The position numbers and the translations under genes were made by a program. The notes below the pieces were generated by a model that saw nothing but the letters and a program-made list of their open reading frames with translations, made no database searches and was not told the origin of the DNA. This document shows positions 17,492 to 44,051 of a stretch of DNA of 48,392 bases, one piece after another. The stretch spans positions 51,988 to 100,379 of the forward strand of contig PKWJ01000017.1 of the NCBI GenBank assembly GCA_003132025.1, read 5' to 3'. This DNA is from Gammaproteobacteria bacterium. GTDB taxonomy: Bacteria > Pseudomonadota > Gammaproteobacteria > Steroidobacterales > Steroidobacteraceae. Positions within the stretch are counted from its first letter, which is position 1. The number at the start of each line of letters is the position of its first letter.

Positions 17492-17766
17492 CCTTTTCTC
17501 ACCGGCGAACCGGCCCACGAGCCACCGACATAGGCGCTGCCCTATCATGACACAGCTTTATTCCTGACTTTCTTAACTCGCGCTCACATTGGTGAACTCG
17601 AAGCACTCACTGTACCCTCATCGGTTGGGCGTTTTTACAACGATGCCGTCCGCCGACCCCGGTGGTACCTTCCCCAGCCACCAGCAACGGCCTGACGTGC
17701 ACACGGTTGACGCACGCCGTCAGGCCCGGCATTGCGCAGCGGGACTGAGTTTGCGATCCTCCCCGG

Positions 17767-25204: not shown

Positions 25205-25313
25205 TCGTGGTCCAGACTGCTTTTGTGCAACGCACCAATGGATCCCCTCCCAAGACTGAAACGCGACCGCGGGTGCTCGAAAGCGGTACCTTATCTGCAT
25301 CGGTGAGGTGTCG

Positions 25314-26474: not shown

Positions 26475-26532
26475 GAGCCCCCACCACGTCGCGCGGTTCG
26501 CGTCCAGCTGACGGCACTGGCGGGAACAGAAT

Positions 26533-29741: not shown

Positions 29742-31022
29742 TCAGCGGATCAGGACGGCTCTGAAATCATTCACGTTGGTCAGCGTCGGGCCGGTCACGA
29801 CCGCATCGCCGAGGCTTTCGAAAAAGCCATGACCGTCGTTGTTGGCCAGGCTGGTCCCGGGATTGAGCCCCAAGCCGCGCGCGCGCGCCAGGGTGTCGGG
29901 AGTCAGGATTGCGCCCGCGACGTCTTCGGTACCATCAACGCCATCGGTGTCACCGGCAATGGCGTACACGCCCGACTGCCCATCGAGCGCGATACCCAGT
30001 GCCAGCAGGAACTCGACATTGCGGCCGCCGCGACCGGCACCGCGCACGGTCACCGTGGTCTCGCCCCCCGACAGCAGCACGCATGGTGCCGCGCACGGCT
30101 GGCCGTGCGTGATCACCTGGCGTGCAATGCCCGCCATGACTTTGCCGACGTCGCGCGCTTCACCCTCGATACTGTCGCCAAGGATCATCGGCACAATACC
30201 CGCCTCACCTGCCACTGCGGCTGCGGCCTCGAGCGCCATCTGTGGCGTGGCTATCATGCGGGTGGCCGCGCCCGCCAGCCGTGCATCGCCGGGCTTCGGG
30301 CTCTCGCCGCGTCCGCTCTCGAGCAGCAGCAGCACATTCGGCGGCACGGTGATGGCATGGCGCCTGAGTATCGCCAGTGCATCCGCGCACGTGGTCGGAT
30401 CGGCAACCGTTGGGCCCGAGCCAATATCGACCGGGTCGTCGCCGGGGACGTCGGAGATCAACAGGGTGATGAGCTGCGCCGGGTGACACGCTGCCCCGAG
30501 TCGTCCGCCCTTGATCGCAGACAGATGCCGGCGCACGCAGTTCATCTCCCGGATCGTGGCACCCGATTTCAGCAGCGCCCGATTGACCGCTTGCTTGTCG
30601 TCGAGACTGAGGCCGGGCAGCGGCAGCACCAGTAGCGCGGAGGCACCGCCGGAGATCAGGCACAGCACCAGATCCTCGGGGCCCAGACCCTGCACCAGCT
30701 GCAGGATCCGCTGCGCTGCCGCAAGTCCCGCCGCATCGGGCACCGGATGAGCCGCCTCGACGATTTCGATGCGACGACAAGGCACCTCATAGCCATAACG
30801 AGTGACGACCAGGCCAGACAGGTCGCCAGCCCAATTGTCCTCCACCGCGCGCGCCATCGCCGCGGAGGCCTTGCCGGCGCCGATCACCACCAGCCGGCCG
30901 CGCGGTGGCTGCGGCAGATGTCGCGGCACGCACCGCGCGGGTTGCGCCGCCTCAATGGCGGCGTCGAACATGCGCCGTAACAAAGCGCGCAACCCGCCCG
31001 CATCGCCTGCGCTGATGGGCAT
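29742..31022 (-). CDS. Glycerate 2-kinase (MOFRL family, TtuD/GckA-like)
   Basis: A 426-residue class II glycerate kinase that converts D-glycerate and ATP to 2-phosphoglycerate, the last step of the glycerate pathway. Motifs: GRLVVIGAGKASAAMARAVE, SGGASALLVLP, ISDVPGDDPVDIGSGPTVAD, LLSGGETTVTV, GRGGRNVEFLLALG and the MOFRL tail AGDTDGVDGTEDVAGA. Older databases call this family hydroxypyruvate reductase, but the kinase role is established for TtuD/GckA. Its ATG (31022) abuts the garR stop at 31023, so the two are translated together. It is the last gene of the minus-strand C2 operon. Confidence 0.93.
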   Translation of the reverse strand: MPISAGDAGGLRALLRRMFDAAIEAAQPARCVPRHLPQPPRGRLVVIGAGKASAAMARAVEDNWAGDLSGLVVTRYGYEVPCRRIEIVEAAHPVPDAAGLAAAQRILQLVQGLGPEDLVLCLISGGASALLVLPLPGLSLDDKQAVNRALLKSGATIREMNCVRRHLSAIKGGRLGAACHPAQLITLLISDVPGDDPVDIGSGPTVADPTTCADALAILRRHAITVPPNVLLLLESGRGESPKPGDARLAGAATRMIATPQMALEAAAAVAGEAGIVPMILGDSIEGEARDVGKVMAGIARQVITHGQPCAAPCVLLSGGETTVTVRGAGRGGRNVEFLLALGIALDGQSGVYAIAGDTDGVDGTEDVAGAILTPDTLARARGLGLNPGTSLANNDGHGFFESLGDAVVTGPTLTNVNDFRAVLIR

Positions 31023-31907
31023 CTATTGCCCGATCTCGTGGTTCGCCAGTAGTTCCAGCGCGCGCACCATGGCCGAATGGTCCCAGGCCTTGCCGCCGCG
31101 CGCGCCGCAGGCATTGAACAGCTCCTGAGCCGTGGCCGTGTTGGGCAAAGAAAGTCCGATCTGGCGCGCAGCGGTCAGCGCCAGATTCAGATCCTTCTGG
31201 TGCAATTCAATGCGAAATCCAGGTTCGAAACTGCGTTTGATCATCCGTTCACCGTGCACTTCCAGGACGCGCGACGACGCGAAGCCGCCCATCAGTGCCT
31301 GACGCACCTTGCCCGGGTCGGCGCCCATTTTGGAAGCGAACAACAGCGCTTCGCCCACCGCCTCGATCGTCAGGGCAACGATGATCTGGTTCGCCACCTT
31401 GCAGGTCTGGCCGTCGCCGTTGCCGCCCACCAGCGTGATGTTCTTGCCCATCAGCTCAAACAGCGGCCTGACCTTGCCGAAGGCGCTTTCGGGCCCGCCG
31501 ACCATGATCGTCAGGCTCGCCGCGCGCGCGCCGAGCTCCCCGCCCGACACCGGCGCGTCCAGGTACTGACAGCCCAGAGCCTCGATCCTGGAGGCAAATG
31601 CCCGGGTCTCGAGCGGGGAAATGGAGCTCATGTCGACCACGATCTTGCCGGGCGACAGCCCCGCCGCAATGCCGTCGGCGTCGAACAGCGCGGCCGCGAC
31701 ATGCGGGGTGTCAGGAACCATGGTGATGATGACGTCGGCGCGTTCGGCCACCGCCTTGCCAGAAACGCACTGGATCGCTCCCTGCGCGATCAGCGCCTGC
31801 GGGGCGGGCTTGTGATCATGAACGTAGAGCTCATGGCCGGCCGCGCGCAGATGCGCCGCCATCGGTCTGCCCATGATGCCAAGACCGACGAAACCGACTT
31901 TGCTCAT
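31023..31907 (-). CDS. garR: Tartronate semialdehyde reductase (2-hydroxy-3-oxopropionate reductase)
   Basis: ATG 31907 gives 294 residues, the usual family length; the open frame upstream runs into hyi and has no homology. It is a beta-hydroxyacid dehydrogenase: GFVGLGIMGRPMA (NADH loop), DAPVSGGELGARAASL (substrate loop at 118-132), and the catalytic Lys170 in GDGQTCKVANQ. The reaction is tartronate semialdehyde plus NAD(P)H to D-glycerate. Other beta-hydroxyacid dehydrogenases look similar, but its place between hyi and glycerate kinase makes this assignment firm. Confidence 0.93.
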   Translation of the reverse strand: MSKVGFVGLGIMGRPMAAHLRAAGHELYVHDHKPAPQALIAQGAIQCVSGKAVAERADVIITMVPDTPHVAAALFDADGIAAGLSPGKIVVDMSSISPLETRAFASRIEALGCQYLDAPVSGGELGARAASLTIMVGGPESAFGKVRPLFELMGKNITLVGGNGDGQTCKVANQIIVALTIEAVGEALLFASKMGADPGKVRQALMGGFASSRVLEVHGERMIKRSFEPGFRIELHQKDLNLALTAARQIGLSLPNTATAQELFNACGARGGKAWDHSAMVRALELLANHEIGQ

Positions 31908-31920
31908 GCTCGTTGCAGCA

Positions 31921-32697
31921 TCACAGGTAAGGCTTGATCCAGCACAGGCCTTCCACGGTACTCTTGGCTGGTTTGTATTCGCAACCGATCCAGCCGGAGT
32001 AGCCCAGCCGGTCGATGAATCCGAACAGGAAGGGGTAGTTGATCTCGCCGCTGCCCGGCTCGTGGCGTCCGGGATTGTCCGCCAGCTGCATGTGGCCGAT
32101 GCGATCCAGATTGCCCTGGATGGTCGCCGCCAGATCCCCCTCCATGACCTGCATGTGATAGATGTCGTACTGCAGGAACAGATTGTCCGAGCCCACCGCA
32201 TCGATGATCTCGAGCGCCTGGCGCGAGCGATTGACGAAGAACCCCGGAATGTCGCGCGTATTGCACGCCTCCAGCAGCAGCCGGATGCCGGCCGCCTTGA
32301 GCTTCACGGCGGCGAAGCGCAGGTTACCGACCAGTGTGTCGAGCGCCCGCTCCCGATCGATGCCGTGCGGCGCGATACCGGCCAGGCAATTGAGCTGCCG
32401 GCACTGCAGTGCCTGCGCGTACTCGATCGCCTGCCCCACGCCGTCCTGAAACTCACCCACGCGGTCGGGCAGACAGGCGATGCCGCGCTCGCCGCCGGCC
32501 CAATCGCCGGCAGGCAGGTTGTGCAGCACCTGGGTCAGGCCGTTGGCCTGCAGGCGCTCGGCCAGATCCTGCATTCGATGCGCATAGGGGAACAGGTATT
32601 CGACCCCCTCGAAGCCGGCGTCCCTGGCAGCACGAAAGCGCTCCAGGAACTCGACCTCGTTGAACAGCAGCGTCAGATTGGCGTTGAACCTTGGCAT
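31921..32697 (-). CDS. hyi: Hydroxypyruvate isomerase
   Basis: From ATG 32697 (AGGTG upstream; a GTG six bases earlier is also possible) the product is 258 residues with the TIM-barrel sugar isomerase pattern. It starts PRFNANLTLLFNE like E. coli Hyi and keeps DAGFEGVEYLFPY, NTRDIPGFFVN, GHMQLADNPGRHEPGSGEIN and GCEYKP. Metal-binding Glu143 and Glu240 are present. The usual LIEPIN sequence reads LLLEACN here, a small local change. It interconverts hydroxypyruvate and tartronate semialdehyde, joining the C2 and C3 steps of glyoxylate use. Confidence 0.92.
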   Translation of the reverse strand: MPRFNANLTLLFNEVEFLERFRAARDAGFEGVEYLFPYAHRMQDLAERLQANGLTQVLHNLPAGDWAGGERGIACLPDRVGEFQDGVGQAIEYAQALQCRQLNCLAGIAPHGIDRERALDTLVGNLRFAAVKLKAAGIRLLLEACNTRDIPGFFVNRSRQALEIIDAVGSDNLFLQYDIYHMQVMEGDLAATIQGNLDRIGHMQLADNPGRHEPGSGEINYPFLFGFIDRLGYSGWIGCEYKPAKSTVEGLCWIKPYL

Positions 32698-32706
32698 CCG
32701 CACCTG

Positions 32707-33477
32707 CTATCGCAGCGTATTGAGCAGCGAGCCTATGCCGTCGATCGTCACCTCAACGGTCGAGCCATCCCTGATCGACCCGACGCCGAGCGAAGTGCCA
32801 CAGGCAATGACGTCGCCCGGCAGCAGCGACATGTCGTGCGATATGCGGCTGACCAGCTCCAGCGGTGGGAAGATCATGTCGGACAGCGGATAGTTCTGTC
32901 GCTCAACGCCGTCCAGCCGGGTAATCACCCGTGCGCGCGAACAGTCGAGCTCGGAGGCGATCACCGGACCTAAGCAGCCGAAGCTGTCGTAGCCTTTGGA
33001 GCGACACCATTGCGCAAAGTCCGGGTTCTCGTTCAGCACCTCGGCGGCGGTGACATCGTCAACGCAGGTGTATCCAAAAATATAGTCAGCGGCACTGCTG
33101 GCCGCAACGTCCTTGCACTGCCGCCCGATCACGATGCCGAGCTCGCCTTCAAATGCGATCTTACCCCGGTACGCCAGCGGCCGCTTTATCGCCTCGCCCG
33201 GTCCGGCGAGCGAGCTGGCCGGCTTGATCAGGTACATCGGATGCGAAGGCGCCGGCTTGCCGAGCTTGGCGCCCAAGGCATGAAAGTTGTTCCATAGCGC
33301 GATGATTTTCGATGGCGTGCACGGAGGCAGCAGCGTGAACGCACCATCAACCACCGTGGCACCGCTCGGCGTCGGGCGATCGAACATGCAACCTTGATAT
33401 TGCGTGATCCCGCCGGCCCCGAGCACGCCGAAACCGACAGCACCATCCGCGGCCCGGAAGCGCGCCCAGCGTGTCAC
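32707..33477 (-). CDS. Fumarylacetoacetate hydrolase (FAH) family protein
   Basis: A 256-residue FAH-fold protein from GTG 33477. The metal ligands are visible: Glu110 and Glu112 in FEGELGIVIG, and Asp141 in YTCVDDVTA. Later motifs QNYPLSDMIFPPLELVSRIS and GDVIACGTSLGVGS complete the active-site pattern. The family includes fumarylpyruvate hydrolases, 2-keto-3-deoxyarabonate dehydratases and oxaloacetate decarboxylases/tautomerases. It lies 4 bp after the PanE-like gene and 9 bp before hyi, so it belongs to the operon. A role on a keto-diacid made in this pathway is likely, but the reaction cannot be named. Confidence 0.88.
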   Translation of the reverse strand: MTRWARFRAADGAVGFGVLGAGGITQYQGCMFDRPTPSGATVVDGAFTLLPPCTPSKIIALWNNFHALGAKLGKPAPSHPMYLIKPASSLAGPGEAIKRPLAYRGKIAFEGELGIVIGRQCKDVAASSAADYIFGYTCVDDVTAAEVLNENPDFAQWCRSKGYDSFGCLGPVIASELDCSRARVITRLDGVERQNYPLSDMIFPPLELVSRISHDMSLLPGDVIACGTSLGVGSIRDGSTVEVTIDGIGSLLNTLR

Positions 33478-33481
33478 CGGC

Positions 33482-34474
33482 TCACGGTCCGGCGCGATCG
33501 GCGGCGATGGTCCGCGCCAGCAGATCGGTGAGCGCGTATACCGCGTTGATGTGGGGCGTCGGCGTGTGCGTGAGGCGGCCGAGTTCCACCACCGAGCCTA
33601 CCAACGCCTCGAGCTCCAGCGGCCGCCCGGCCTCCACATCCTGCAGCATCGAGGTCTTGTGCTTGCCGACTTTCTCCGCGCCGGCGATGCGTTTCTCCAG
33701 ATCAACGCGAAAGGTGATACCGAGTTTGGTGGCCACCGCCTGCGCCTCGGTCATCATCGCGGCCGCAAGCGCTCGCGTGGGCGGAAACTGGCAGATATCG
33801 ACCAGCGTGGAACGCGTGAGCGCACTGATCGGATTGAACGTCAGGTTGCCCCAGACCTTAAGCCATATCTCGGCGCGTATATCATCCAGCACCGGCGCCT
33901 TGAATCCGGCCCGAATGAAACAATCGGCGACCTGCGTCGCCCGCGGGCTGTGCGAGCCATCGAGCTCTCCGACCGGAAAGCGTTCGCCCTCGATGTGTTT
34001 GACGACTCCCGGGGCGACCAGCTCGGACGCCGGGTAGACCACGCAGCCCACGACCCGCTCGGCAGAAATTTTCTGGCTGATCACTCCGTTCGGATCCACG
34101 CTGCGCACGACGCTGCCGGCCAGCTGACCGCCATGCCGATGGAAATACCAGTACGGTATTCCGTTCTGCATCGTCACTACGACGGTATCGGCGCCAAACA
34201 GCCTCGGCACCTGGTCCGCAACCGCCTCGAGCTGGTTGGCTTTCACCGCCAGGATCACCAGGTCCTGCGGCCCGGCGGCGCCGTAGTCGTCGGTTGCCTT
34301 GACGTTCGACGCCAGCTGTTCGCTGCCATCGTTCATCATCAGCTTGATGCCGTTGCTGCGAATGGCCTGCAGGTTCGCGCCGCGCACCATGCAGGTGACG
34401 TCTTCGCCGGCCAGAGCGAGCCTGGCGGCGACATAACCGCCGATGGCGCCCGCGCCAACAACCGCGATCTTCAC
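33482..34474 (-). CDS. PanE-like 2-oxoacid reductase; candidate oxalyl-CoA reductase
   Basis: A 330-residue ketopantoate-reductase-fold protein: N-terminal AVVGAGAIGGYVAARLA, Asn104 in TMQNGIPYWYF, and the catalytic Lys206 with Asn210 and Asn214 in WLKVWGNLTFNPISALT. TSMLQDVEAGRPLELEAL carries the late conserved acid. In Methylobacterium extorquens AM1 the paralogue PanE2 is an oxalyl-CoA reductase that makes glyoxylate from oxalate. This gene sits in the operon with hyi, garR and glycerate kinase and opposite an oxalate transporter and formyl-CoA:oxalate transferase, the context expected for that activity rather than for pantothenate synthesis. The assignment is inferred from context. A related copy lies at 45137-46111. 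Confidence 0.8.
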   Translation of the reverse strand: MKIAVVGAGAIGGYVAARLALAGEDVTCMVRGANLQAIRSNGIKLMMNDGSEQLASNVKATDDYGAAGPQDLVILAVKANQLEAVADQVPRLFGADTVVVTMQNGIPYWYFHRHGGQLAGSVVRSVDPNGVISQKISAERVVGCVVYPASELVAPGVVKHIEGERFPVGELDGSHSPRATQVADCFIRAGFKAPVLDDIRAEIWLKVWGNLTFNPISALTRSTLVDICQFPPTRALAAAMMTEAQAVATKLGITFRVDLEKRIAGAEKVGKHKTSMLQDVEAGRPLELEALVGSVVELGRLTHTPTPHINAVYALTDLLARTIAADRAGP

Positions 34475-34513
34475 CGTTCCCCCTGGGCGCGCGTAGCTGT
34501 TATAAGGTGCCCG

Positions 34514-35233
34514 CTAGTCGAGAAAGTCGCAATAGCGTTCGACGTGCGCGGCCAGGTCGAGCGTGTGCTGCCGGCTCAGTTGCTCGGCCAGTTCGGTATC
34601 CCGACGCTCCAGCGCTTCGATGATCCTCAGATGATCGACGATCGAGCGCGCGGCGCGGTTGTCCTGCGAGATCGTGACCTTGCGGATGGCGCGCACGTGG
34701 ATAAACAGGTTCTTGGTCGCCTCCGCAATCAGCCGTGAGCCGCCCAAGCGGATGATCAGCTGATGAAACGCGATGTTGGCGTCCGAATACTCGCCGATGT
34801 GCTCCGACGGCGGTGAGTTCTCGAACTCGTCGAACAGGTGGCGCAGCTTGCTGATTTCGGAATCGGGCGCATGCAGCGTCGCCAGGCGCGCCGACATGCC
34901 TTCGAGCGCCGCCCACACCTGGATCATCTCGATGATTTCACGCTTGGATTTGCGCACGATGAAGATTCCGCGGCGCGGGATCGTGCGCACGAAGCCTTCC
35001 TGCTCCAGGATCGACAGCGCTTCGCGCACCGGAGTGCGGCTCACGCCCAGCGCCTGCGTCAGCTGCCGTTCGTCGAGTCGCAGCGGCCGCCGTTCACTGT
35101 AGATGTCGGTGTCCGCAATGGCGTCCTTGAGCAGCGCGTAGGCCTGGTCGCGCAAGCTGACCGAATTCAGCGGCGCCAGCGCCAGCGGACCGGCCATGCT
35201 GCGGATCGGCCGCACTGTGGCCACCGTACTCAT
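34514..35233 (-). CDS. GntR-family (FadR/FCD) transcriptional regulator
   Basis: A 239-residue regulator. Residues 25-93 are the winged helix DNA-binding domain (SVSLRDQAYALLKDAIA, LTQALGVSRTPVREALSILE, GFVRTIPRRGIFIV). Residues 100-230 are the FCD effector domain with likely metal ligands Asp151, His157, His179 and His201, where small carboxylates usually bind. It heads the minus-strand operon 39 bp before the PanE-like gene and diverges from the oxlT-like operon, so it probably controls both in response to oxalate, glyoxylate or a related acid. Confidence 0.92.
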   Translation of the reverse strand: MSTVATVRPIRSMAGPLALAPLNSVSLRDQAYALLKDAIADTDIYSERRPLRLDERQLTQALGVSRTPVREALSILEQEGFVRTIPRRGIFIVRKSKREIIEMIQVWAALEGMSARLATLHAPDSEISKLRHLFDEFENSPPSEHIGEYSDANIAFHQLIIRLGGSRLIAEATKNLFIHVRAIRKVTISQDNRAARSIVDHLRIIEALERRDTELAEQLSRQHTLDLAAHVERYCDFLD

Positions 35234-35587
35234 GCCAGCACCGATGACGGCAAAAACATCAGCATCCTGAATACCTTGTTGTTATCGAGTCGGATCCAAG
35301 GAATCGAGTGGGATTCAGGGAAATTTATTATGCGCTGAATTACAGTGTCAAGATATATCACGCACCGGATATCAAGTACATTGAACTCCCGAAGGCCAGT
35401 TGACAACGCCGAGATATATCACATATGGTCCGCAGCAACCAAAAATATGTGGGTCTAAATTCACGCTTTGGGGGTTCCGGGGCGATCGAATGGGGTACAG
35501 GTCGCACAACTTCGCTCCGATCATATACCGAGGCCGCCCGGCCGCGGACCTCGTGGCTCCCGACACGTGACATAAGGAGAACCAGCC
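35234..35587. promoter_or_regulatory. Divergent promoter region between gntR and the oxlT operon
   Basis: This 354-bp stretch has no convincing gene. It is clearly more AT-rich than its surroundings, especially 35320-35470, as expected for two divergent promoters. It contains the repeated GATATATC motif listed separately and, at its right end, AAGGAG eight bases before the oxlT ATG. I could not pick firm -35/-10 pairs. Confidence 0.7.
35351..35422. promoter_or_regulatory. Repeated palindrome-containing motif, candidate GntR operators
   Basis: AGATATATCAC occurs twice, at 35351-35361 and 35412-35422, exactly 61 bp apart (close to six helical turns). Each contains the perfect palindrome GATATATC. 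A partial version, GGATATCAAG, lies between them. Identical spaced palindromes in a divergent promoter next to a GntR gene are good operator candidates. The motif differs from the common FadR-type TGGT-N-ACCA half sites, so this is a prediction only. Confidence 0.5.
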
Positions 35588-36910
35588 ATGGCTGCCAGCT
35601 CGAAGTCACCGTCCGCCTCGGTTTTCGCCCATCCGTGGCTGCAGTTAATACTCGGCGTCATCTGCATGGCGTCCGTGGCAAACCTGCAATACGGCTGGAC
35701 CTTGTTCGTCAACCCGATCGATTCCCAGTACCACTGGGGGCGGCCCTCGATTCAGGTAGCCTTCACGATCTTCGTGCTGATCGAGACCTGGCTGGTACCC
35801 ATCGAAGGTTACCTGGTCGACCGCTTTGGGCCGCGCCCAGTCGTAATCGGCGGCGGCATCCTGGTGGGGCTCGCCTGGATGCTCAATTCAGTGGCGGATT
35901 CACTGTCGCTGCTGTACTTCGCCGCCGCCCTGGGCGGTATCGGCACCGGTGCGGTGTACGGAACCTGCGTCGGCAATGCGCTGAAGTGGTTCCCCGGCCG
36001 GCGCGGGCTCGCGGCCGGCATCACCGCTGCCGGCTTTGGCGCTGGCGCCGCGATAACCATCGTGCCGATCTCGAAAATGATCGCCACCGACGGCTATCAG
36101 CACGCGTTCATGTTCTTTGGCGTCCTGCAGGGTGCCATCGTATTTGTCATGGCCTGGGGCCTGCTGGCGGCACCACCGGCGCTAGTCGCGGCTGCCCCGC
36201 GTCCCAACCAGGCCGCGCGCAGCTTTACCCCGCCCCAGGTGCTGCGCAAACCGGTGTTCTACGTCATGTACCTGATGTTCGTGCTGGTAGCCGCCGGCGG
36301 CCTGATGATGGCGGCGTCGATGGCACCGATCGCCAGGGATTTCAAGATCGATAAAATTCCGGTAGCACTGCTCGGCATGGCGATGCCGGCGCTGACCTTC
36401 GCGATTTTCCTGAACCGGATATTCGACGGCGTCGGCCGGCCGCTGTTTGGATGGGTGTCGGACCAGATCGGGCGTGAGAACACCATGGCGATCGCGTTTG
36501 TGATCGGCGCCGGCGCTCTGTTTACGCTCGGCCAGGCCGGCCGCAATCCGGTGGTGTTCGTGCTGATTACGGCGCTGTACTTCGGCGTGTTCGGTGAAAT
36601 CTACAGCCTGTTTCCGGCCACTCAGGGCGACACCTTCGGCGCCAAGTTCGCCGCCGCCAACGCCGGCATGCTCTACACCGCCAAGGGCATGGGCTCACTG
36701 CTGGTCCCGGTTGCAGCCAAGCTGGCACTATCGGCGGGCTGGCATGTCGTGTTTACCATCGCGATGGGCTTCAACCTCGTGGCTGCGGCGCTCGGCTTGT
36801 TCGTTCTCAAACCGATGCGCGCCCGGCATTTCGCGGCGACGCGCGCAGAAGTCGACACCGCGGCGATCGCAAGCGGCGGTACACCGATGCAGCATGCGCC
36901 CGGCCGCTGA
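35588..36910 (+). CDS. oxlT: Oxalate:formate antiporter (OxlT)-like MFS transporter
   Basis: A 440-residue twelve-helix MFS protein of the OFA family. It aligns with Oxalobacter OxlT through NLQYGWTLFVNPI, VDRFGPRPVVIGGG, WFPGRRGLAAGITAAGFG, and the two residues that bind the substrate in OxlT: Arg284 in GVGRPLFGWVSD and Lys366 in LYTAKGMGS. OxlT swaps oxalate for formate and so helps generate proton motive force. With both charged residues kept and frc two genes downstream, oxalate (or a similar dicarboxylate) is the likely cargo. AAGGAG precedes ATG 35588. It opens the operon. Confidence 0.85.
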   Translation: MAASSKSPSASVFAHPWLQLILGVICMASVANLQYGWTLFVNPIDSQYHWGRPSIQVAFTIFVLIETWLVPIEGYLVDRFGPRPVVIGGGILVGLAWMLNSVADSLSLLYFAAALGGIGTGAVYGTCVGNALKWFPGRRGLAAGITAAGFGAGAAITIVPISKMIATDGYQHAFMFFGVLQGAIVFVMAWGLLAAPPALVAAAPRPNQAARSFTPPQVLRKPVFYVMYLMFVLVAAGGLMMAASMAPIARDFKIDKIPVALLGMAMPALTFAIFLNRIFDGVGRPLFGWVSDQIGRENTMAIAFVIGAGALFTLGQAGRNPVVFVLITALYFGVFGEIYSLFPATQGDTFGAKFAAANAGMLYTAKGMGSLLVPVAAKLALSAGWHVVFTIAMGFNLVAAALGLFVLKPMRARHFAATRAEVDTAAIASGGTPMQHAPGR

Positions 36911-36991
36911 GCAACGCATGGCGCTCATGCACGCCAGCCGGGACACCTGCCGGCGCATTTAGTTGATCTGGTCGACGACCTCGGAGCAATT

Positions 36992-38755
36992 ATGACACCC
37001 GCAAACTCTGCCGCCGCAGCGGCACCAGCCGCCACCACCGCCGACAACACCCTGCAGCCCAAGAGCCGCGACGCCGGGGTGGTCTCGGGCGGTCATCTGG
37101 TGGCAAAGGCCCTCAAAAACGAGGGCGTGGACACCATCTTCACCTTGTGCGGCGGCCACATCATCGACATCTACGACGGCTGCATCGACGAGGGCATCCG
37201 CATCATCGACGTGCGCCACGAACAGGTCGCCGCACATGCCGCCGACGGCTACGCGCGTCAGACCGGCAAGCTCGGCTGCGTGGTCACCACCGCCGGCCCG
37301 GGCTGTACCAATGCCATGACCGGAATCGCCACTGCATTTCGCTCCGAGAGTCCGGTGCTGCATATCGGCGGCCAGGGCGCGCTCACACAGCACAAGATGG
37401 GCTCGCTGCAGGACCTGCCGCACGTGGAGCTGCTGCAGCCGATCACCAAGTTCGCCGCCTCGGTGCCCAGCACCGAGCGCGTGGCCGACATGATCTCAAT
37501 GGCAGCACGCGAAGCGTTCAACGGCGCCACCGGACCGGTTTATCTGGAGATACCGCGCGACGTGCTCGATCGCGAAGTCGAGCTGTCGAAGGCGGTCATT
37601 CCCAAACCAGGTCACTACCGCGCCTCGACCAAGTCGATCGGTGATCCGCGCGACATCGACAAGCTGGCCGACATCCTGGTCAATTCCGAGCGTCCCGCGA
37701 TCCTCTACGGCCAGCAGGTGTGGTCAGCTCGCGGGCACGAGGAAGCGATCGCCCTGCTGCGCGGCCTGGACATTCCCGGCTACTTCAATGGCGGCAGCCG
37801 CGGGCTGCTGCCGCCAGGCGATCCCCACCACTTCGATCGTACCCGCGGCAGTGCATTTTCCGATGCCGACGTCATCGTCATCGTCGGCACGCCGTTCGAT
37901 TTTCGCATGGGCTACGGCCGGCGCATCAGCACCAAGCTCAAGCTGGTGCAGATCGACATGGACTATCGCACGGTCGGCAAGAACCGCGACATCGACCTCG
38001 GGCTGGTGGGCGATCCAGGGGCAATCCTGGGCGCGGTGCTGCAGGCCGCCTCCGGCCGCCTCAAGCAGGACAAGCGCCAGGCGCGCCGGCAATGGATGAA
38101 AAAACTCACCGATGCGGAGAGCGCAGCCACGGAAAAGCTGATGCCGCTGTTCAAATCCAATGCGGTGCCGATTCATCCGTACCGCGTGGCCTATGAGCTC
38201 AACGAGTTCCTGGCCGACAACACCATTTACATCGGCGACGGCGGCGACGTGGTGACCATCTCAGCGCAAGCCGTGCGTCCGCGCGCGCCGGGCCAGTGGA
38301 TGGATCCCGGCGCCCTCGGCTCGCTTGGTGTCGGCACCGGATTCGCCATCGCCGCGGGCCTCGCCCACCCGAGCAAGGAGGTGCTGTGTTACTACGGCGA
38401 CGGCTCCTTCGGCATGACCGCGTTCGACATGGAGACCGCCAATCGGTTCGGCGTGCCCTACATCGCCGTCATCGGTAACAACTCGGCGATGAATCAGATC
38501 CGCTACGGTCAACTGGCGAAATACGGCGAGGAACGCGGCAACGTCGGTAACCTGCTGGGCGATGTTCCGTTCGGCAAATTCGCTGAAATGCTTGGCGGCT
38601 ACGGCGAAGAGGTGCGCGATCCGGCACAGATCGCCGCTGCCCTGGTGCGTGCGCGCGAATCGGTACACCGCCTGGGCCGCTCGGCGGTGATCAACATCTG
38701 GGTCGACCCGCGCGAGTACGCGCCGGGAACCAAGAATCAGACCATGTACAAATAA
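36992..38755 (+). CDS. TPP-dependent 2-hydroxyacyl-CoA lyase / oxalyl-CoA decarboxylase-like enzyme
   Basis: A 587-residue ThDP enzyme. The cofactor-activating Glu77 lies in DVRHEQVAAHAADGYAR. GPGCTNAMTGIATAFRSESP and TQHKMGSLQDLPHVE line the active site, and the GDGSFGMTAFDMETANRF motif followed by GNN binds TPP-magnesium. Glyoxylate carboligase lacks that Glu, so it is not a standard Gcl. Between frc and oxlT one expects oxalyl-CoA decarboxylase, but the Oxc signatures I know (NEGANTLDN, NNGGIY) are absent. The SAMNQIRYGQ region and the C-terminal APGTKNQTMYK tail instead recall bacterial 2-hydroxyacyl-CoA lyases, which split 2-hydroxyacyl-CoA to formyl-CoA and a carbonyl. Both reactions yield formyl-CoA, the CoA donor used by Frc. 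An extra Ala-rich N-terminus of about 25 residues is present. CGGAG precedes ATG 36992. Confidence 0.8.
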   Translation: MTPANSAAAAAPAATTADNTLQPKSRDAGVVSGGHLVAKALKNEGVDTIFTLCGGHIIDIYDGCIDEGIRIIDVRHEQVAAHAADGYARQTGKLGCVVTTAGPGCTNAMTGIATAFRSESPVLHIGGQGALTQHKMGSLQDLPHVELLQPITKFAASVPSTERVADMISMAAREAFNGATGPVYLEIPRDVLDREVELSKAVIPKPGHYRASTKSIGDPRDIDKLADILVNSERPAILYGQQVWSARGHEEAIALLRGLDIPGYFNGGSRGLLPPGDPHHFDRTRGSAFSDADVIVIVGTPFDFRMGYGRRISTKLKLVQIDMDYRTVGKNRDIDLGLVGDPGAILGAVLQAASGRLKQDKRQARRQWMKKLTDAESAATEKLMPLFKSNAVPIHPYRVAYELNEFLADNTIYIGDGGDVVTISAQAVRPRAPGQWMDPGALGSLGVGTGFAIAAGLAHPSKEVLCYYGDGSFGMTAFDMETANRFGVPYIAVIGNNSAMNQIRYGQLAKYGEERGNVGNLLGDVPFGKFAEMLGGYGEEVRDPAQIAAALVRARESVHRLGRSAVINIWVDPREYAPGTKNQTMYK

Positions 38756-38775
38756 GGAACGCACGGAGACCGTAG

Positions 38776-40023
38776 ATGGCGAGAGCATTGGATGGCGTCC
38801 GTATACTCGACTTTACGCACGTGCAGTCGGGTCCAACCTGCACCCAGCTGCTGGCTTGGTTCGGCGCCGACGTCATCAAAGTGGAGCGCGCCGGCCACGG
38901 CGACATTACGCGCGAGCAGCTGCGCGACATTCCCGACGTGGACAGCCTGTACTTCACCATGCTAAACCACAACAAACGCTCGATCACACTCGACACCAAG
39001 AACAAGACCGGCAAAGCGGTGCTTGAAAAGCTCATCGGGTACTGCGACGTGCTGGTCGAGAACTTCGCGCCCGGCGCACTCGATCGCATGGGCTTCACCT
39101 GGGAGCGCATCCAGCAACTCAATCCGAAGATGATCGTCGCTTCGGTCAAGGGATTCGGCCCTGGACCGTACGAGGACTGCAAGGTGTATGAAAACGTCGC
39201 CCAGTGTGCCGGCGGCGCCGCATCCACCACCGGCTTCGATGACGGGCCGCCCCTGGTCACCGGCGCGCAGATCGGCGACAGCGGCACCGGCCTGCACCTG
39301 GCTCTTGGCATCGTCTGTGCCCTGTACCAACGCAAGACCACTGGCCGCGGCCAACGCGTATTGGCGGCGATGCAGGACGGCGTCTTGAACCTGTGCCGCG
39401 TCAAGCTGCGCGATCAACAGCGCCTTGCCCGCAACAAGGTCATGAAGGAATATCCGCAGTACCCCAAGGGGAAGTTCGGTTCCGCGGTGCCTCGCGCCGG
39501 CAATGCCTCGGGCGGCGGCCAACCGGGCTGGATCATCAAGTGCAAGGGCTGGGAGACCGACCCTAATGCGTATCTTTATTTCATCACCCAGGCGCCGGTG
39601 TGGAAGGAGATCTGCAACGTGATCGGCAAACCCGAGTGGATTACCGATCACGACTACGCGACACCGCACGCGCGCCTGCCGCGCCTGATGGAGATTTTTG
39701 CCGCGGTCGAACACTGGACGATGACCAAGACCAAGTTCGAGGCCATGGAGGAGTTCAACAAGCACGACATCCCCTGCGGTCCGATCCTGTCGATGGAGGA
39801 ACTGGCCGCCGAGCCGTCATTGCGCGCCAGCGGCACCATCGTGGAGGTCGAGCATCCGACCCGCGGCAAGTACCTGTCGGTCGGCAACCCGATCAAGTTG
39901 TCCGACAGCCCTACCGAGGTCACGCGCTCGCCGCTGCTCGGGGAGCATACCGATGAAGTGCTGGCCGAGCTTGGCCTGGGCGCCGATGAAATCGCGGCAC
40001 TGCGCGCCGAAAAGGTGATCTGA
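38776..40023 (+). CDS. frc: Formyl-CoA:oxalate CoA-transferase
   Basis: A 415-residue class III CoA-transferase that closely follows Oxalobacter Frc: [64 protein letters not shown], the catalytic Asp168 in [10 protein letters not shown], and LGEHTDEVL near the end. The glycine loop that closes over the acyl-aspartyl intermediate reads SGGGQPGW, one Gly replaced by Ser relative to GGGGQ. It is a little shorter than OfFrc because of a deletion before that loop. It moves CoA from formyl-CoA to oxalate, giving oxalyl-CoA and formate. GGAG lies seven bases before ATG 38776. Confidence 0.93.
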
Positions 40024-40024
40024 C

Positions 40025-42214
40025 ATGCCCCAGGACAGCGCGCTTGGCCGTGCAGCCGTCAGCCAGGCAGACCACTCGCCACATGACCGGGCTGCGGTGC
40101 GTAAGCTGCTCGACTGTGCCCGCGCCGCGGGGCGCGGTGCACTGACCGCGCCGGAGTCGAAGGCCATTTGCGACGCCTACGGTATCGCTGTACCCAAGGA
40201 AGGCGTGGCCGCGGATGCCGCCCACGCGGCCAGACTTGCCACGGACATCGGCTTTCCGGTGGTCATGAAGATCGTATCGCCGCAGATCCTGCACAAGACC
40301 GAGGCGGGCGGCGTCGTGGTGGGCGTCAAGAACGCCGAGCACGCCGCGCAGGCCTTCGACAGTATCATCGCCAATGCGCGCCGTTACGACCCGAAGGCGA
40401 GCATCAACGGCGTGCAGGTGCAGCAGATGCTGGCCGGCGGCCAGGAAGTGATCATCGGCGCGGTCACCGATCCGGCCTTTGGCAAACTGGTCGCATTTGG
40501 CCTGGGCGGCATCCTGGTCGAGGTACTGAAGGACATCACCTTTCGTCTGGCACCCGCCACACGCGAGGACGCCCTGTCGATGCTGGATGGCATCGCGGCG
40601 GCGGAGATCCTGCGCGGCGTTCGCGGCGCCGATCCGGTCGACCGCGATGCCCTGGCGGGCATGATCCAGAGCGTGTCGCGGCTGGTGGCGGACTTTCCGG
40701 AGATCTCGGAGCTCGATCTCAACCCGGTGTTTGCCACCAACAGCGGCGCCACCGCAGCCGACGTACGTGTGGTGCTCGATTTCACTCCCCCGGTGCCGCG
40801 CTATCGGCCGAAAAAGGAGGACATCGTCCGGCAGATGAACCGCATCATGAAACCCGACGCGGTAGCGGTGATCGGTGCCTCGAACGAAAGCGGCAAGATC
40901 GGCAATTCGGTGATGAAGAATCTCATCAACGGCGGCTACCAGGGCGAGATCTATCCGATTCATCCCAGCGCTGATTCGATCATGGGCAAGAAGGCCTATA
41001 AGAGCGTCAAGGACGTTGCCGGCGTCATCGACGTGGCAGTGTTCGCGATTCCGGCCAAATTCGTCGCCCAGGCGCTGATCGAGGTGGGCGAGAAGAAGAT
41101 CCCCGGCGCCGTGCTGATCCCTTCCGGCTTTGCCGAAACCGGCAACGTCGCCGGTCAGCTCGAGTTGGTGGCCATCGCGCGCAGGTACGACATCCGCCTC
41201 ATGGGGCCAAATATCTACGGTTTTTATTACACCCCGAAGAACCTGTGCGCCACATTCTGCACCGCCTATGACGTCAAGGGCACGGCCGCCTTGTCGTCCC
41301 AGTCCGGCGGCATCGGCATGGCGATCATCGGCTTCTCGCGCTCGGCCAAAATGGGCGTGTCGGCGATCGTCGGGCTGGGGAATAAATCGGATATCGACGA
41401 GGACGATCTGCTAACCTTCTTCGAGCAAGATGACAACACCCAGATCATCGCCCAGCACTGCGAGGATCTCAAGGACGGCCGCGCATTCGCCGAAGTCGCC
41501 AAGCGCGTGTCGAAGAAGAAGCCGATCGTAGTGCTCAAGGCGGGACGCACCAGCATGGGCGCGCGCGCGGCCAGCTCACACACCGGCGCCCTCGCCGGCA
41601 ACGACAAGATCTACGAAGACGTATTCAAGCAGTCCGGCGTGATCCGTGCGCGCTCACTGCGCGACCTGCTCGAATTCGCTCGCGGCATCCCGGTACTGCC
41701 TACGCCGAAGGGCAACAACGTCGTGATCATCACCGGCGCAGGCGGCTCGGGCGTGCTGTTGTCGGACGCCTGTGTCGACAATGCACTGACGCTGATGGCG
41801 ATGCCGGCGGATCTGGATGCCGCGTTCCGCAAGTTCATTCCGCCCTTTGGCGCCGCCGGCAACCCGGTGGATATCACTGGCGGTGAGCCGCCGAGCACCT
41901 ACCAGAACACGGTGCGCCTGGGGCTCGAGGACCCGCGCATTCACGCGCTGATCCTGGGCTACTGGCACACCATCGTCACGCCACCGATGGTATTCGCGCG
42001 CCTGATGGTCGAGGTGGTCAGCGAGATGCGCAGCAAGGGCTTCGTCAAGCCGGTCGTCGCCTCACTGGCCGGCGACGTGGAAGTGGAGCAGGCGGCGGAG
42101 TTCCTGTACCAGCACGGCATCCCGGCCTATGCCTATTCGACCGAGATCCCGGTGGCCGTGCTGGGAGCCAAGTTCAAATGGGCGCGTGGCGCCGGGTTGA
42201 TCCCGGCGGCCTGA
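40025..42214 (+). CDS. NDP-forming acyl-CoA synthetase, ATP-grasp half first
   Basis: A 729-residue fused synthetase starting one base after the frc stop. Residues 25-250 form the ATP-grasp (beta) part (FPVVMKIVSPQILHKTEAGG, LVAFGLGGILVEVLKD, ISELDLNPV). Residues 270-729 form the CoA-binding and ligase (alpha) part: AVIGASNESGKIGNSV, LIPSGFAETG, LSSQSGGIGMA and the phospho-His region AASSHTGALAGN (His519). Such enzymes make acyl-CoA from an acid, CoA and ATP (giving ADP and phosphate) or run in reverse. In an frc operon it could activate oxalate or formate, or recover ATP from formyl-CoA. The usual GPNCLG sequence reads GPNIYGFYYTPKN, which may mark an unusual substrate. Confidence 0.88.
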   Translation: MPQDSALGRAAVSQADHSPHDRAAVRKLLDCARAAGRGALTAPESKAICDAYGIAVPKEGVAADAAHAARLATDIGFPVVMKIVSPQILHKTEAGGVVVGVKNAEHAAQAFDSIIANARRYDPKASINGVQVQQMLAGGQEVIIGAVTDPAFGKLVAFGLGGILVEVLKDITFRLAPATREDALSMLDGIAAAEILRGVRGADPVDRDALAGMIQSVSRLVADFPEISELDLNPVFATNSGATAADVRVVLDFTPPVPRYRPKKEDIVRQMNRIMKPDAVAVIGASNESGKIGNSVMKNLINGGYQGEIYPIHPSADSIMGKKAYKSVKDVAGVIDVAVFAIPAKFVAQALIEVGEKKIPGAVLIPSGFAETGNVAGQLELVAIARRYDIRLMGPNIYGFYYTPKNLCATFCTAYDVKGTAALSSQSGGIGMAIIGFSRSAKMGVSAIVGLGNKSDIDEDDLLTFFEQDDNTQIIAQHCEDLKDGRAFAEVAKRVSKKKPIVVLKAGRTSMGARAASSHTGALAGNDKIYEDVFKQSGVIRARSLRDLLEFARGIPVLPTPKGNNVVIITGAGGSGVLLSDACVDNALTLMAMPADLDAAFRKFIPPFGAAGNPVDITGGEPPSTYQNTVRLGLEDPRIHALILGYWHTIVTPPMVFARLMVEVVSEMRSKGFVKPVVASLAGDVEVEQAAEFLYQHGIPAYAYSTEIPVAVLGAKFKWARGAGLIPAA

Positions 42215-42293
42215 GCGGACGGTGCCAGACGACGGTTTGTTGACTCGATCCTAAAGGGTTCAGTTTTTGTTACTACTCAAGCGGGGGGATGAC

Positions 42294-44051
42294 ATGGCTA
42301 TCAACAAGGCGCCCGGAATGCTGGTTGCGCTGCTGGCTTCCGGTTTGATGATCTGTATCTACGCGGGCCCGAGCGCCGCGCAATCGGCGCAGGACCAGTC
42401 CATGCAGGACCGCATACGTGCCCTGCAACAGCAGATGGACGAACTGTCCAGACAACTCAATCAGGTGAAGCAGGAGCAGCAGGCGCAGGCGGCACAACAG
42501 GCCGCGGTCCCTGCGCCCGTGGTCCCTGTGCCCGCCGCCCCGGCGCCAGGAGGCAAGGCACCGTCGGCTCCGGAGAGCCGCTTCGACCAGTTCGTCAAGG
42601 GCTTCTTTGGCACCTTCGACATGTCGTTAGACGACACGACCAAGGGCATCGACCAGAAGTCGGCCTTCCCGTGGAGCTACGTCAATCCGCTCAACCCCGC
42701 CTCGGGGCTGGTGGCAGGGCCGAACAAGGGTACGGCCACCGGTCGCGTCGGCTGGATTCCGGCCATCTCCAGCAACGGTTCCAATATCGGTTATCGCGGC
42801 ACGCACCGGATCGGCAATTCGGACACGGACTTCATCTACCAGATCTCCACTGGGCTGAATATGGCGGCTGCGCCGGGTCTGCAGGACACGTGGACGAAGT
42901 CGTCCAACACCGTTGTCGGTGCCGTCGGCCTGGGGGATACCTATATCGGCTTCAAGGGCCAGAGCTGGGGTAGCGTCAAGATCGGGACCATGTACAGCGG
43001 ATACAAGACCTCGACCGACCGGCTCAATCCGTTCGGCAGCACGCTGGGCAACTACAACGCGATCGTCGGCAATTCCGGCGGCGACAACCGCGTGGAGTTC
43101 GGCCAGCGCTTTGATCACATCATCCAGTACCAATCGCCCGTGTGGTCCGGCGTCCGCTTTGAGGCAATGGTGTCACCCTCGCAGAACGTGAACTACAACA
43201 ACGTCACGATTCCGCTGGGTTCATCCGATTGCTCGGGCAGCAATGCGCCGGGTAGCGGCAATCTGCCGGAAAACTGCGACGACGGCGCCTTCGGCGATGC
43301 GTACGGCATCGACGTCGAGTACGAGACGGGCGGCCTGTACCTGACCGCGGCCTATGAGATGCACCGCTCGACCAATCGCAACAGCGATGGCATCGGTGCC
43401 AATAGCCCCTACTACAACTACCTGCTGGCCACCAACAGCCCGCTGCTGGACTTCGCGGAATGGAATGCATGGGCGGCCGAAAACCCAGGTGAGGCAGCCC
43501 AGGGTTCTCCGCCCTACCTGAACGATGTCTACAACGAGTACGCCTTCAAGTATGGCGGCCAGTATCGCTTCCCGTTTGGCTTCGTGGTCGATGCGCTGTA
43601 CGAGCACATGTTCCGCAAGGTGCCCGCGGACATGGAGTGGCAGAACGAGCGTGAGCGCCCCGACACCTGGATCGCACTGGAGCAGGACCTGGCCGACGGC
43701 CGCGACGTGCTCGCTGTCGGCTGGGCGCATGCGTTCAAGACGAACGGTGATCCATCCGGTCAGCACAACTTCAATGCGCTGCTGGCTTCGGAGGGCGATT
43801 ACGTCGCGAACATGTACACGTTCCTGTACCGGCATCGCCTCGACAAGCAGCTGACGTTCTACTTCAACGGTGCGGCGACGATCAACGACGGCAACGCGCA
43901 CTATGACATCGGTGCCGGTGGGCACGGCATCAAGACCGATTGCCACGACGGCACCAATACTGTGTTCCAGGACTTCAGCAGCTCCGGTCCCACGACCTGG
44001 GGCGGCTGTCATGACATGGGATTCACGACCGGCGTGGACTACAAGTTCTGA
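42294..44051 (+). CDS. Outer-membrane porin with N-terminal coiled coil
   Basis: ATG 42294 follows GGGGGGATGAC; the frame opens at TTG 42267. The 585-residue product has a signal peptide (MLVALLASGLMICIYAGPSAAQ), a Gln-rich coiled coil (RIRALQQQMDELSRQLNQVK, about residues 38-65), a Pro/Ala linker, then a long beta-barrel domain ending in the aromatic signature GVDYKF. The barrel repeats motifs such as GDTYIGFKGQSWGSVKIG typical of general (porin_4) porins. Two Cys pairs in loops (about SDCSG/ENCDDG and KTDCHD/WGGCHD) could form disulfides. It lies about 80 bp after the oxalate operon, so oxalate or other small anions are a plausible cargo. Confidence 0.85.
   Translation: MAINKAPGMLVALLASGLMICIYAGPSAAQSAQDQSMQDRIRALQQQMDELSRQLNQVKQEQQAQAAQQAAVPAPVVPVPAAPAPGGKAPSAPESRFDQFVKGFFGTFDMSLDDTTKGIDQKSAFPWSYVNPLNPASGLVAGPNKGTATGRVGWIPAISSNGSNIGYRGTHRIGNSDTDFIYQISTGLNMAAAPGLQDTWTKSSNTVVGAVGLGDTYIGFKGQSWGSVKIGTMYSGYKTSTDRLNPFGSTLGNYNAIVGNSGGDNRVEFGQRFDHIIQYQSPVWSGVRFEAMVSPSQNVNYNNVTIPLGSSDCSGSNAPGSGNLPENCDDGAFGDAYGIDVEYETGGLYLTAAYEMHRSTNRNSDGIGANSPYYNYLLATNSPLLDFAEWNAWAAENPGEAAQGSPPYLNDVYNEYAFKYGGQYRFPFGFVVDALYEHMFRKVPADMEWQNERERPDTWIALEQDLADGRDVLAVGWAHAFKTNGDPSGQHNFNALLASEGDYVANMYTFLYRHRLDKQLTFYFNGAATINDGNAHYDIGAGGHGIKTDCHDGTNTVFQDFSSSGPTTWGGCHDMGFTTGVDYKF

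What the first reader, a model, noticed from the sequence alone, without database searches (positions are those of the whole stretch)
29742..44051. Two divergent operons that together describe an oxalate-to-glycerate route
Seen directly: a minus-strand run (gntR, PanE-like, FAH-family, hyi, garR, glycerate 2-kinase) with gaps of 0-39 bp, divergent from oxlT-like, a TPP enzyme, frc, an acyl-CoA synthetase and then a porin. Established: Frc makes oxalyl-CoA; OxlT carries oxalate and formate; PanE2 of Methylobacterium extorquens reduces oxalyl-CoA to glyoxylate; GarR and glycerate kinase finish assimilation. Inference: the locus encodes both energy-yielding (decarboxylation) and carbon-assimilating (reduction) use of oxalate under one GntR regulator. 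The full combination in one divergent locus, including a porin and an NDP-forming synthetase, is not one I recall being described.
Basis: partly seen in the sequence, partly recalled or inferred. Interest (0 to 1): 0.82.

Follow-up and report, generated by a model that had tools for sequence, protein, structure and literature searches.

The report
Oxalate locus with swapped-in decarboxylase
This is a bacterium's gene set for living on oxalate, in which the usual oxalyl-CoA-splitting enzyme is apparently replaced by a distant and so far unnamed relative; in two genera examined, genomes tend to carry one or the other, which could explain oxalate-eaters that lack the textbook gene.

Summary
One link differs: the ThDP enzyme (36992-38755) is not the known oxalyl-CoA decarboxylase (Oxc; 220 bits, cut-off 739) nor glyoxylate carboligase (141, cut-off 711). 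It belongs to a separate, tightly conserved family (76-98% identical in Proteobacteria, about 65% in Streptomyces), with Frc next to it in 79 of 81 loci.

Three results suggest a functional stand-in for Oxc. (1) The genes avoid each other: 24 genomes with only this enzyme, 92 with only Oxc, 13 with both, of 144 Paraburkholderia; 13, 40 and 1 of 60 Cupriavidus. (2) Ten of ten Oxc-only Paraburkholderia loci read keep GntR, operator and Frc with this gene missing. (3) Five strains published as oxalate-degrading have this enzyme, no Oxc over cut-off, and one Frc beside it.

A conserved site (GTGATATATCAC) lies, in two imperfect copies, between the operons, supporting one GntR regulon. A second PanE-like gene (45137-46111) was missed. 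Weak link: no glyoxylate carboligase was found in the genome, so the step to tartronate semialdehyde is unknown; hyi-garR-kinase were seen only here and in one close relative. No activity has been shown.

The parts
29742..31022 (-). glycerate 2-kinase type (DUF4147 + MOFRL)
   Evidence: Pfam PF13660 300 bits, PF05161 123 bits; under the two NCBIfam equivalog cut-offs
31023..31910 (-). GarR, 2-hydroxy-3-oxopropionate (tartronate semialdehyde) reductase; the ORF start at 32201 is spurious
   Evidence: TIGR01505 401 bits, cut-off 341; translation
31921..32703 (-). Hyi, hydroxypyruvate isomerase; also passes the 2-oxotetronate isomerase model
   Evidence: TIGR03234 389 bits, cut-off 353; NF043033 375, cut-off 325
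32707..33477 (-). fumarylacetoacetate-hydrolase family enzyme, role unknown; a FAH relative is in 38 of 53 related loci
   Evidence: PF01557 182 bits
33482..34474 (-). PanE-A, PanE/ApbA-family reductase, candidate oxalyl-CoA reductase
   Evidence: PF02558/PF08546; 46% to PanE-B and 51-53% to Cupriavidus cluster PanE
34514..35233 (-). GntR/FCD regulator of the proposed regulon
   Evidence: PF07729, PF00392; GntR in 44 of 53 related loci
35322..35351 (-). sigma-70-like promoter of the minus-strand operon
   Evidence: TTGACA-18-TAAATT, consensus match only
35350..35361 (.). GntR operator-like site AAGATATATCAC (2 mismatches to GTGATATATCAC)
35400..35429 (+). sigma-70-like promoter of the plus-strand operon
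   Evidence: TTGACA-18-TATGGT, consensus match only
35411..35422 (.). GntR operator-like site GAGATATATCAC (1 mismatch), inside the spacer of the + promoter
35588..36910 (+). OxlT-like oxalate/formate MFS antiporter
   Evidence: TIGR04259 580 bits, cut-off 335
36992..38755 (+). ThDP enzyme of a separate family; proposed functional replacement of oxalyl-CoA decarboxylase
38776..40023 (+). Frc, formyl-CoA:oxalate CoA-transferase
   Evidence: TIGR03253 727 bits, cut-off 504; E. coli YfdW 611 bits; only Frc over cut-off in the genome
40025..42214 (+). NDP-forming acyl-CoA synthetase, single chain
   Evidence: PF13549, PF13607, PF19045; ACS or SucC in 31 of 53 related loci
42267..44051 (+). porin-like outer-membrane protein, likely start 42294
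   Evidence: no Pfam match, no NCBIfam match at 1e-20, no convincing PDB match (best E 0.087); anatomy; relatives in 6 of 53 loci
44917..44928 (.). weak operator-like site GTGGTATATCTC (2 mismatches) upstream of PanE-B
   Evidence: not conserved in L025
45137..46111 (+).
   Evidence: PanE-B type in 24 of 53 loci

Best explanation
The locus is a GntR-controlled regulon for growth on oxalate. OxlT brings oxalate in; Frc moves CoA from formyl-CoA onto oxalate; the ThDP enzyme (36992-38755) decarboxylates oxalyl-CoA to formyl-CoA and CO2, taking the place of Oxc although it belongs to another branch of the ThDP superfamily; the formate made can be exported or oxidised. Part of the oxalyl-CoA is reduced by PanE-A and/or PanE-B to glyoxylate. 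That reduction uses up a thioester, so the NDP-forming acyl-CoA synthetase is needed to make new ones. Hyi, GarR and the kinase bring hydroxypyruvate or tartronate semialdehyde to 2-phosphoglycerate. Shown here: gene content, family limits, co-occurrence, absence of the ThDP gene from its slot in the Oxc genomes read, the shared operator-like site. Inferred: the reaction of the ThDP enzyme, the role of the synthetase, operator function. Unknown: how glyoxylate reaches the C3 level without glyoxylate carboligase, and the role of the FAH protein.
For: Presence pattern: of 144 Paraburkholderia genomes 24 have only this enzyme, 92 only Oxc, 13 both, 15 neither (Fisher p = 1.2e-8); of 60 Cupriavidus 13, 40, 1, 6 (p = 6.5e-8; one partial hit of each gene counted). 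Frc goes with either: 37 of 37 this-enzyme-only genomes (36 with one copy), 16 of 16 Oxc-only genomes given to the call, 3 of 21 with neither. Slot: 10 of 10 Oxc-only Paraburkholderia loci read have GntR, operator-like site and Frc with this gene missing (alignment breaks for 3 of the 10); L143 likewise lacks it between divergent sucDC and Frc-ACS, with Oxc 4-5 kb away. Phenotype: PMC3886118 Table 1 lists LMG21444, LMG19447, LMG22037, LMG18924 and LMG19076 as oxalate-positive; their genomes (L067, L051, L079, L073, L104) have this enzyme, no Oxc over cut-off, and one Frc directly downstream. Regulon: similar GntR and operator-like site in this-enzyme loci and in Oxc loci. Reductase: a PanE-type gene stands in 6 of 7 Cupriavidus Oxc loci read, one of them with a truncated Oxc match; deleting apbA2 near frc-oxc slows C. 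necator on oxalate (PMC7486775, passages).
Against: No activity is shown for any member. None of the Oxc substrate-positioning residues compared is kept (Tyr and Glu of GDYEE, Tyr of NNGVY, Glu-Ser of the lid); in PMC7190790 changing Tyr126, Glu127 or Tyr485 to Ala each left about 10% activity (passages). 13 Paraburkholderia carry both enzymes, so exclusion is not strict, and 15 plus 6 genomes have neither. Genomes are not independent and the tests are not corrected for phylogeny. Only 5 of the oxalate-positive strains of PMC3886118 were tied to genomes here, and two of these identities (LMG18924 = C4D1M, LMG19076 = NBRC 102488) are recalled. The AlphaFold2 model was poor (mean pLDDT 64). Genes for formate oxidation were not looked for in this genome.
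Confidence: 0.72

Rival explanations
1. The ThDP enzyme is a carboligase: it joins the formyl unit of oxalyl-CoA or formyl-CoA to glyoxylate (giving tartronyl-CoA), or joins two glyoxylates, and so feeds GarR in place of glyoxylate carboligase.
For: No glyoxylate carboligase over cut-off in this genome or in G229, the genome of L025, the two seen with hyi-garR-kinase in the locus. [quoted passage not shown] Oxc-type enzymes can carboligate (PMC8411744, passages).
Against: 36 of 51 genomes with this enzyme also have glyoxylate carboligase, while the gene that avoids it in two genera is Oxc. A pure carboligase would leave no formate as energy source and no formyl-CoA donor for Frc (inference).
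Confidence: 0.12
2. The cluster is for another 2-hydroxy or 2-keto acid (for example tartronate): the ThDP enzyme cleaves a 2-hydroxyacyl-CoA to an aldehyde and formyl-CoA, and Frc recycles the formyl-CoA.
For: Closest solved relatives are 2-hydroxyacyl-CoA lyases (271 bits); FAH genes and distant aldehyde-dehydrogenase relatives (about 25% identical) occur in some loci.
Against: The acid-base Glu493 of the actinobacterial lyase aligns with Ile503 here. Frc and OxlT pass the oxalate-specific models. Oxc takes the place of this enzyme in the same kind of regulon, and five Oxc-less carriers degrade oxalate.
Confidence: 0.08
3. The enzyme is an old bystander; avoidance of Oxc reflects clade structure, and oxalate growth of Oxc-less strains rests on other genes.
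For: Genomes are related and the tests are uncorrected; 13 genomes carry both.
Against: The pattern repeats in two genera, Frc is rare in genomes with neither gene (3 of 21), and the gene is missing at a fixed slot in 10 of 10 Oxc-only loci read.
Confidence: 0.08

Closest known systems
Oxalyl-CoA decarboxylase (Oxc) - Frc - OxlT oxalate degradation cluster (Oxalobacter, P. phytofirmans Bphyt_6739-6741)
   Same: OxlT- and Frc-family neighbours, ThDP enzyme beside Frc, proposed reaction
   Different: The ThDP enzyme is about 25-27% identical to Oxc, far under the Oxc cut-off and without its substrate-positioning residues
Cupriavidus PanE-GntR-Frc-FAH-PntAB-OxlT-Oxc-Frc locus (all genes in L146; OxlT not in the stretch of L144 and L145; PanE not found in L142; physiology of C. 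necator in PMC7486775)
   Same: Similar GntR, operator-like site, Frc, FAH and PanE type; degradation plus reductive assimilation
   Different: Oxc instead of the window's ThDP enzyme; no Hyi, GarR or glycerate kinase in the stretches read
Actinobacterial 2-hydroxyacyl-CoA (2-hydroxyisobutyryl-CoA) lyase, PDB 7pt1-4
   Same: Closest solved structure by sequence, conserved Gln and GGH motif
   Different: 271 bits only; 350 bits on NF058623 against a cut-off of 600; acid-base Glu493 aligned to Ile
Glycerate pathway operon gcl-hyi2-tsr-ttuD1 (C. necator, PMC7486775)
   Same: hyi, GarR-type reductase and a glycerate kinase in one run
   Different: No gcl in the run and none over cut-off in the genome

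Membership tests
Oxalyl-CoA decarboxylase (TIGR03254) | score over the curated cut-off (739.4 bits) | tested here: not met
   220.6 bits; best in the genome 220.4
Oxalyl-CoA decarboxylase (TIGR03254) | substrate-positioning residues Tyr-Glu (Me 134/135), Tyr497, Glu567-Ser568 of the lid | tested here: not met
   Leu139, Gln140, Ile503 or its neighbour (gap in the alignment), Lys581, Asn582; residue roles from passages of PMC8411744 and PMC8760513
Oxalyl-CoA decarboxylase (TIGR03254) | ThDP-activating glutamate | tested here: met
   Glu77, invariant in 20 sequences and shared with Oxc
Oxalyl-CoA decarboxylase (TIGR03254) | decarboxylation of oxalyl-CoA | not testable with these tools
   needs an enzyme assay
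Glyoxylate carboligase (TIGR01504) | score over cut-off 711.2 bits | tested here: not met
   140.9 bits
Glyoxylate carboligase (TIGR01504) | Val in place of the activating Glu (recalled as a hallmark) | tested here: not met
   Glu77 here, Val in the two carboligases
Actinobacterial 2-hydroxyacyl-CoA lyase (NF058623) | score over cut-off 600 bits and acid-base Glu493 | tested here: not met
   350 bits; Ile503 aligned to Glu493
Formyl-CoA:oxalate CoA-transferase (TIGR03253) | score over cut-off 504.2 bits | tested here: met
   727.3 bits
Oxalate/formate antiporter (TIGR04259) | score over cut-off 335 bits | tested here: met
   580.1 bits
Oxalyl-CoA reductase (PanE2/ApbA2) | PanE/ApbA family protein beside oxalate genes | tested here: met
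Oxalyl-CoA reductase (PanE2/ApbA2) | reduction of oxalyl-CoA to glyoxylate | not testable with these tools
   needs an assay; PanE2 and ApbA2 themselves were not fetched, so identity to them was not measured
Glycerate pathway | glyoxylate carboligase present | tested here: not met
   none over cut-off in G000
Glycerate pathway | tartronate semialdehyde reductase and hydroxypyruvate isomerase | tested here: met
   TIGR01505 and TIGR03234 over cut-off

The most novel reading that the evidence does not exclude
In lineages without glyoxylate carboligase, such as this one, the ThDP enzyme does both jobs: it decarboxylates oxalyl-CoA and uses the same formyl-CoA carbanion to extend glyoxylate to tartronyl-CoA (or makes tartronate semialdehyde directly), so that one enzyme links the energy and carbon branches and feeds Hyi-GarR-kinase. 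That would be a natural formyl-CoA carboligation route for carbon assimilation.
Probability: 0.1. Interest if true: 0.88.

Novelty: new variant of a known kind. Interest (0 to 1): 0.64.

Why it matters
Surveys of oxalotrophy take oxc as the key gene (for example PMC10192776, passages). If a second enzyme class does the same step, oxc-based counts of oxalate degraders are too low, strains that grow on oxalate without oxc are explained, and proteins now named only 'thiamine pyrophosphate-binding protein' (the name in the three annotated relatives of at least 64% identity) gain a testable function. It would also add a second active-site design to an enzyme group that is being engineered for one-carbon chemistry (PMC8411744, passages).

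Tried and rejected
Considered and rejected: that the ThDP enzyme is plain Oxc or plain glyoxylate carboligase. AlphaFold2 on 20 family members gave a poor model (mean pLDDT 64, pTM 0.47), so no fold search was run. The porin-like ORF had no Pfam match, no NCBIfam match at 1e-20 and no convincing PDB match. The FAH protein's nearest solved relatives are uncharacterised or isomerase/decarboxylase types, with acylpyruvases further down, which did not suggest a role. Papers on a GntR regulator of oxalate genes, on an Oxc stand-in or on tartronyl-CoA in such loci: the searches listed none that I recognised as describing this enzyme; listings were capped and mostly not opened, and subscription papers are mostly not held. 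P. phenazinium (oxalate-negative in PMC3886118) would be a good negative control but I could not tie it to a genome.

Circularity to note: the scan used two peptides of the query (GMTAFDM, TKNQTMY) as patterns, so conservation of the C-terminus among its loci is partly built in; relatives found in other ways also end in QTMYK.

Papers: PMC3886118 parts 1-2 of 5 plus one passage; PMC7486775, PMC8411744, PMC8760513, PMC11271303, PMC10192776, PMC12927642, PMC5116747, PMC7190790, PMC5986945 passages only; PMC9476978 whole text. Schneider 2012 (PanE2) was seen only through PMC7486775, PMC8411744 and reference lists; Blackmore & Quayle 1970 only as a reference title.

Full report
Setting. The window lies in contig C29 of a 4.2 Mb assembly, 97% complete, 4.7% contamination. 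The closest locus found, L025, is from a gammaproteobacterial MAG (97% identity of the ThDP enzyme), with the same gene order through PanE-B except that the porin was not detected. In its own class the enzyme is rare: 4 of 229 genomes, this one included.

What is there. In detail: a minus-strand run GntR - PanE-A - FAH - Hyi - GarR - glycerate kinase with gaps of 0-39 bp, divergent from OxlT - ThDP enzyme - Frc - acyl-CoA synthetase - porin-like ORF. Frc, OxlT, GarR and Hyi pass curated cut-offs; the kinase matches Pfam strongly but is under the two NCBIfam equivalog cut-offs; Hyi also passes a 2-oxotetronate isomerase model. A second PanE/ApbA gene, PanE-B, stands at 45137-46111.

The ThDP enzyme is not Oxc. 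It scores 220 bits on the Oxc model (cut-off 739) and 141 on glyoxylate carboligase (cut-off 711). Its relatives form a tight family. On plasmid records it is 79.5-87% identical in Cupriavidus, Caballeronia and Phyllobacterium (5 records) and 64-65% in Streptomyces and Nonomuraea (3 records); the other 10 of 18 records are at about 35% or less. Read to the stop codon, 84 of 84 loci end in QTMYK, with YAPGTKNQTMYK in 71; the scan pattern TKNQTMY makes this partly circular, but the Streptomyces and class relatives were found without it. It keeps the ThDP-activating Glu77 but not the Oxc substrate-positioning residues compared, nor the acid-base Glu493 of the actinobacterial lyase. The lid position aligned to the Oxc serine is Asn in most members and Ala in 7 of 84.

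Neighbourhood. Of 81 loci (out of 88) with at least 1.5 kb beyond the match, 79 have Frc within 1 kb on the same strand; exceptions are L082 and L094. Of 53 loci with at least 7 kb on both sides: Frc 52, GntR 44, OxlT 42, FAH 38, ACS or SucC 31, a PanE 27, hyi+garR+kinase 1 (L025). So the core is GntR - ThDP enzyme - Frc - FAH - OxlT, and the glycerate genes look like a local addition. A Phyllobacterium plasmid carries most of the core (no GntR listed) with PEP carboxylase, two sucCD pairs, transhydrogenase and a PanE, which fits NADPH-driven reduction and C3/C4 assimilation.

Exclusion with Oxc. Among 51 genomes with the enzyme (47 behind 49 of the 80 named loci, two not held, plus four of the window's class), 9 have Oxc over cut-off and 36 have glyoxylate carboligase; 15, including this one, have neither. 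In the genus set of 144 Paraburkholderia: enzyme only 24, Oxc only 92, both 13, neither 15, Fisher p = 1.2e-8. In 60 Cupriavidus: 13, 40, 1, 6, p = 6.5e-8; this counts one partial hit of each gene, G400 and G437. The tests treat genomes as independent, which they are not. Frc (E <= 1e-140) was found in 37 of 37 enzyme-only genomes, 16 of 16 Oxc-only genomes (16 of 132 were given to the call) and 3 of 21 with neither; one of those three, G434, has a truncated Oxc match (L148). The 14 genomes with both were not in that call.

Missing from its slot. Around the Frc copy that is not beside Oxc, 10 of 10 Oxc-only Paraburkholderia genomes read (10 of 92) have GntR, an operator-like site, Frc and OxlT with the ThDP gene missing; FAH and PanE-B are there in 9 of 10, and in one (L158) sucDC stands between GntR and Frc. 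For the three of these compared by DNA alignment with three loci that have the gene, the match stops upstream of it and resumes at its end or just before Frc; for example 2.3 kb in L035 against 0.4 kb in L151. In Cupriavidus, L143 has divergent sucDC - operator - Frc - ACS without the ThDP gene, and Oxc 4-5 kb away; in 6 of 7 Oxc loci read a PanE - GntR - Frc - FAH set stands beside Oxc-Frc (the seventh, L142/L138, lacks the PanE; L148 has the truncated Oxc).

Phenotype link. PMC3886118 Table 1 reports growth with clearing on calcium oxalate for LMG21444, LMG19447 and LMG22037, which are named in the titles of L067, L051 and L079, and for LMG18924 and LMG19076, which I recall to be the strains of L073 and L104. 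All five genomes carry the ThDP enzyme, no Oxc over cut-off, and one Frc, directly downstream. The other oxalate-positive strains of that table were not tied to genomes here. The same paper's PsJN oxc mutant lost growth on oxalate; the one genome of 144 with its oxc primer (G334, inferred to be PsJN) has Oxc and not this enzyme, so no backup was present. The paper's remark that frc and the antiporter are not single-copy there fits L149.

Regulation. GATATATCAC occurs twice in the window, both times between the operons (0.04 expected). The 12-base palindrome GTGATATATCAC, with at most one mismatch, lies within 700 bp upstream of OxlT or the ThDP gene in 45 of 82 loci (0.1 expected from base shuffles; many loci are close relatives; loci titled as Alphaproteobacteria, Hyphomicrobiales or Streptomyces had 4-5 mismatches). 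It also stands in front of PanE, Frc or Oxc in the Cupriavidus Oxc loci and between GntR and Frc in 10 of 10 loci; three stretches around canonical Paraburkholderia OxlT-Oxc-Frc clusters (L137, L139, L140) have none. In the window one copy, with one mismatch, sits in the spacer of the + promoter-like site and the other, with two, overlaps the edge of the - one, as expected of a repressor. That GntR binds it is inferred.

Mechanism and gaps. Oxalate entry, CoA transfer and reduction follow known families; decarboxylation by the ThDP enzyme is inferred from displacement of Oxc. Reduction of oxalyl-CoA consumes a thioester that Frc cannot regenerate, which would explain the synthetase (inference). 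How glyoxylate reaches tartronate semialdehyde without carboligase is open: the ThDP enzyme itself, or a serine route to hydroxypyruvate followed by Hyi and GarR. [quoted passage not shown] Formate dehydrogenase and serine-route genes were not searched.

Verdict. Observation confirmed; the oxalate reading and single regulator well supported; the decarboxylase is not the textbook one; the glycerate half is, on what was read, lineage-specific and incomplete. The interest lies in the probable second class of oxalyl-CoA-processing enzyme.

Noticed in passing
L105 (Phyllobacterium zundukense plasmid NZ_CP104969.1), 389-20583: The cluster lies on a 394 kb plasmid together with PEP carboxylase, two sucCD pairs, transhydrogenase and a PanE: a C2-acid module on one replicon.
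   Followed up: partly
L106 (Streptomyces fungicidicus plasmid), 6156-17827: Actinobacterial version of the core: aldehyde dehydrogenase, sucDC divergent from ThDP enzyme - frc - acyl-CoA synthetase - OFA transporter, then a sugar-phosphate isomerase-family gene.
   Followed up: partly
L055, L063, L107, L143 and others: A SucDC-like pair divergent from the ThDP enzyme or from Frc in Cupriavidus and relatives; substrate unknown, perhaps a second oxalate- or formate-activating synthetase.
   Followed up: no
L148 (G434), about 7030-8100: Oxc match truncated (about 1.1 kb) in a Cupriavidus-set genome with two Frc; assembly error or decayed gene not told apart.
   Followed up: no
window 19656-21629: 657-aa ORF with a HAD hydrolase domain followed by an APH-type kinase domain, an uncommon fusion as far as I recall.
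   Followed up: no
window 22508-27519: MMPL-family transporter, glycosyltransferase family 21 type and LPG-synthase-TM type genes in a row; possibly a lipid modification set.
   Followed up: no
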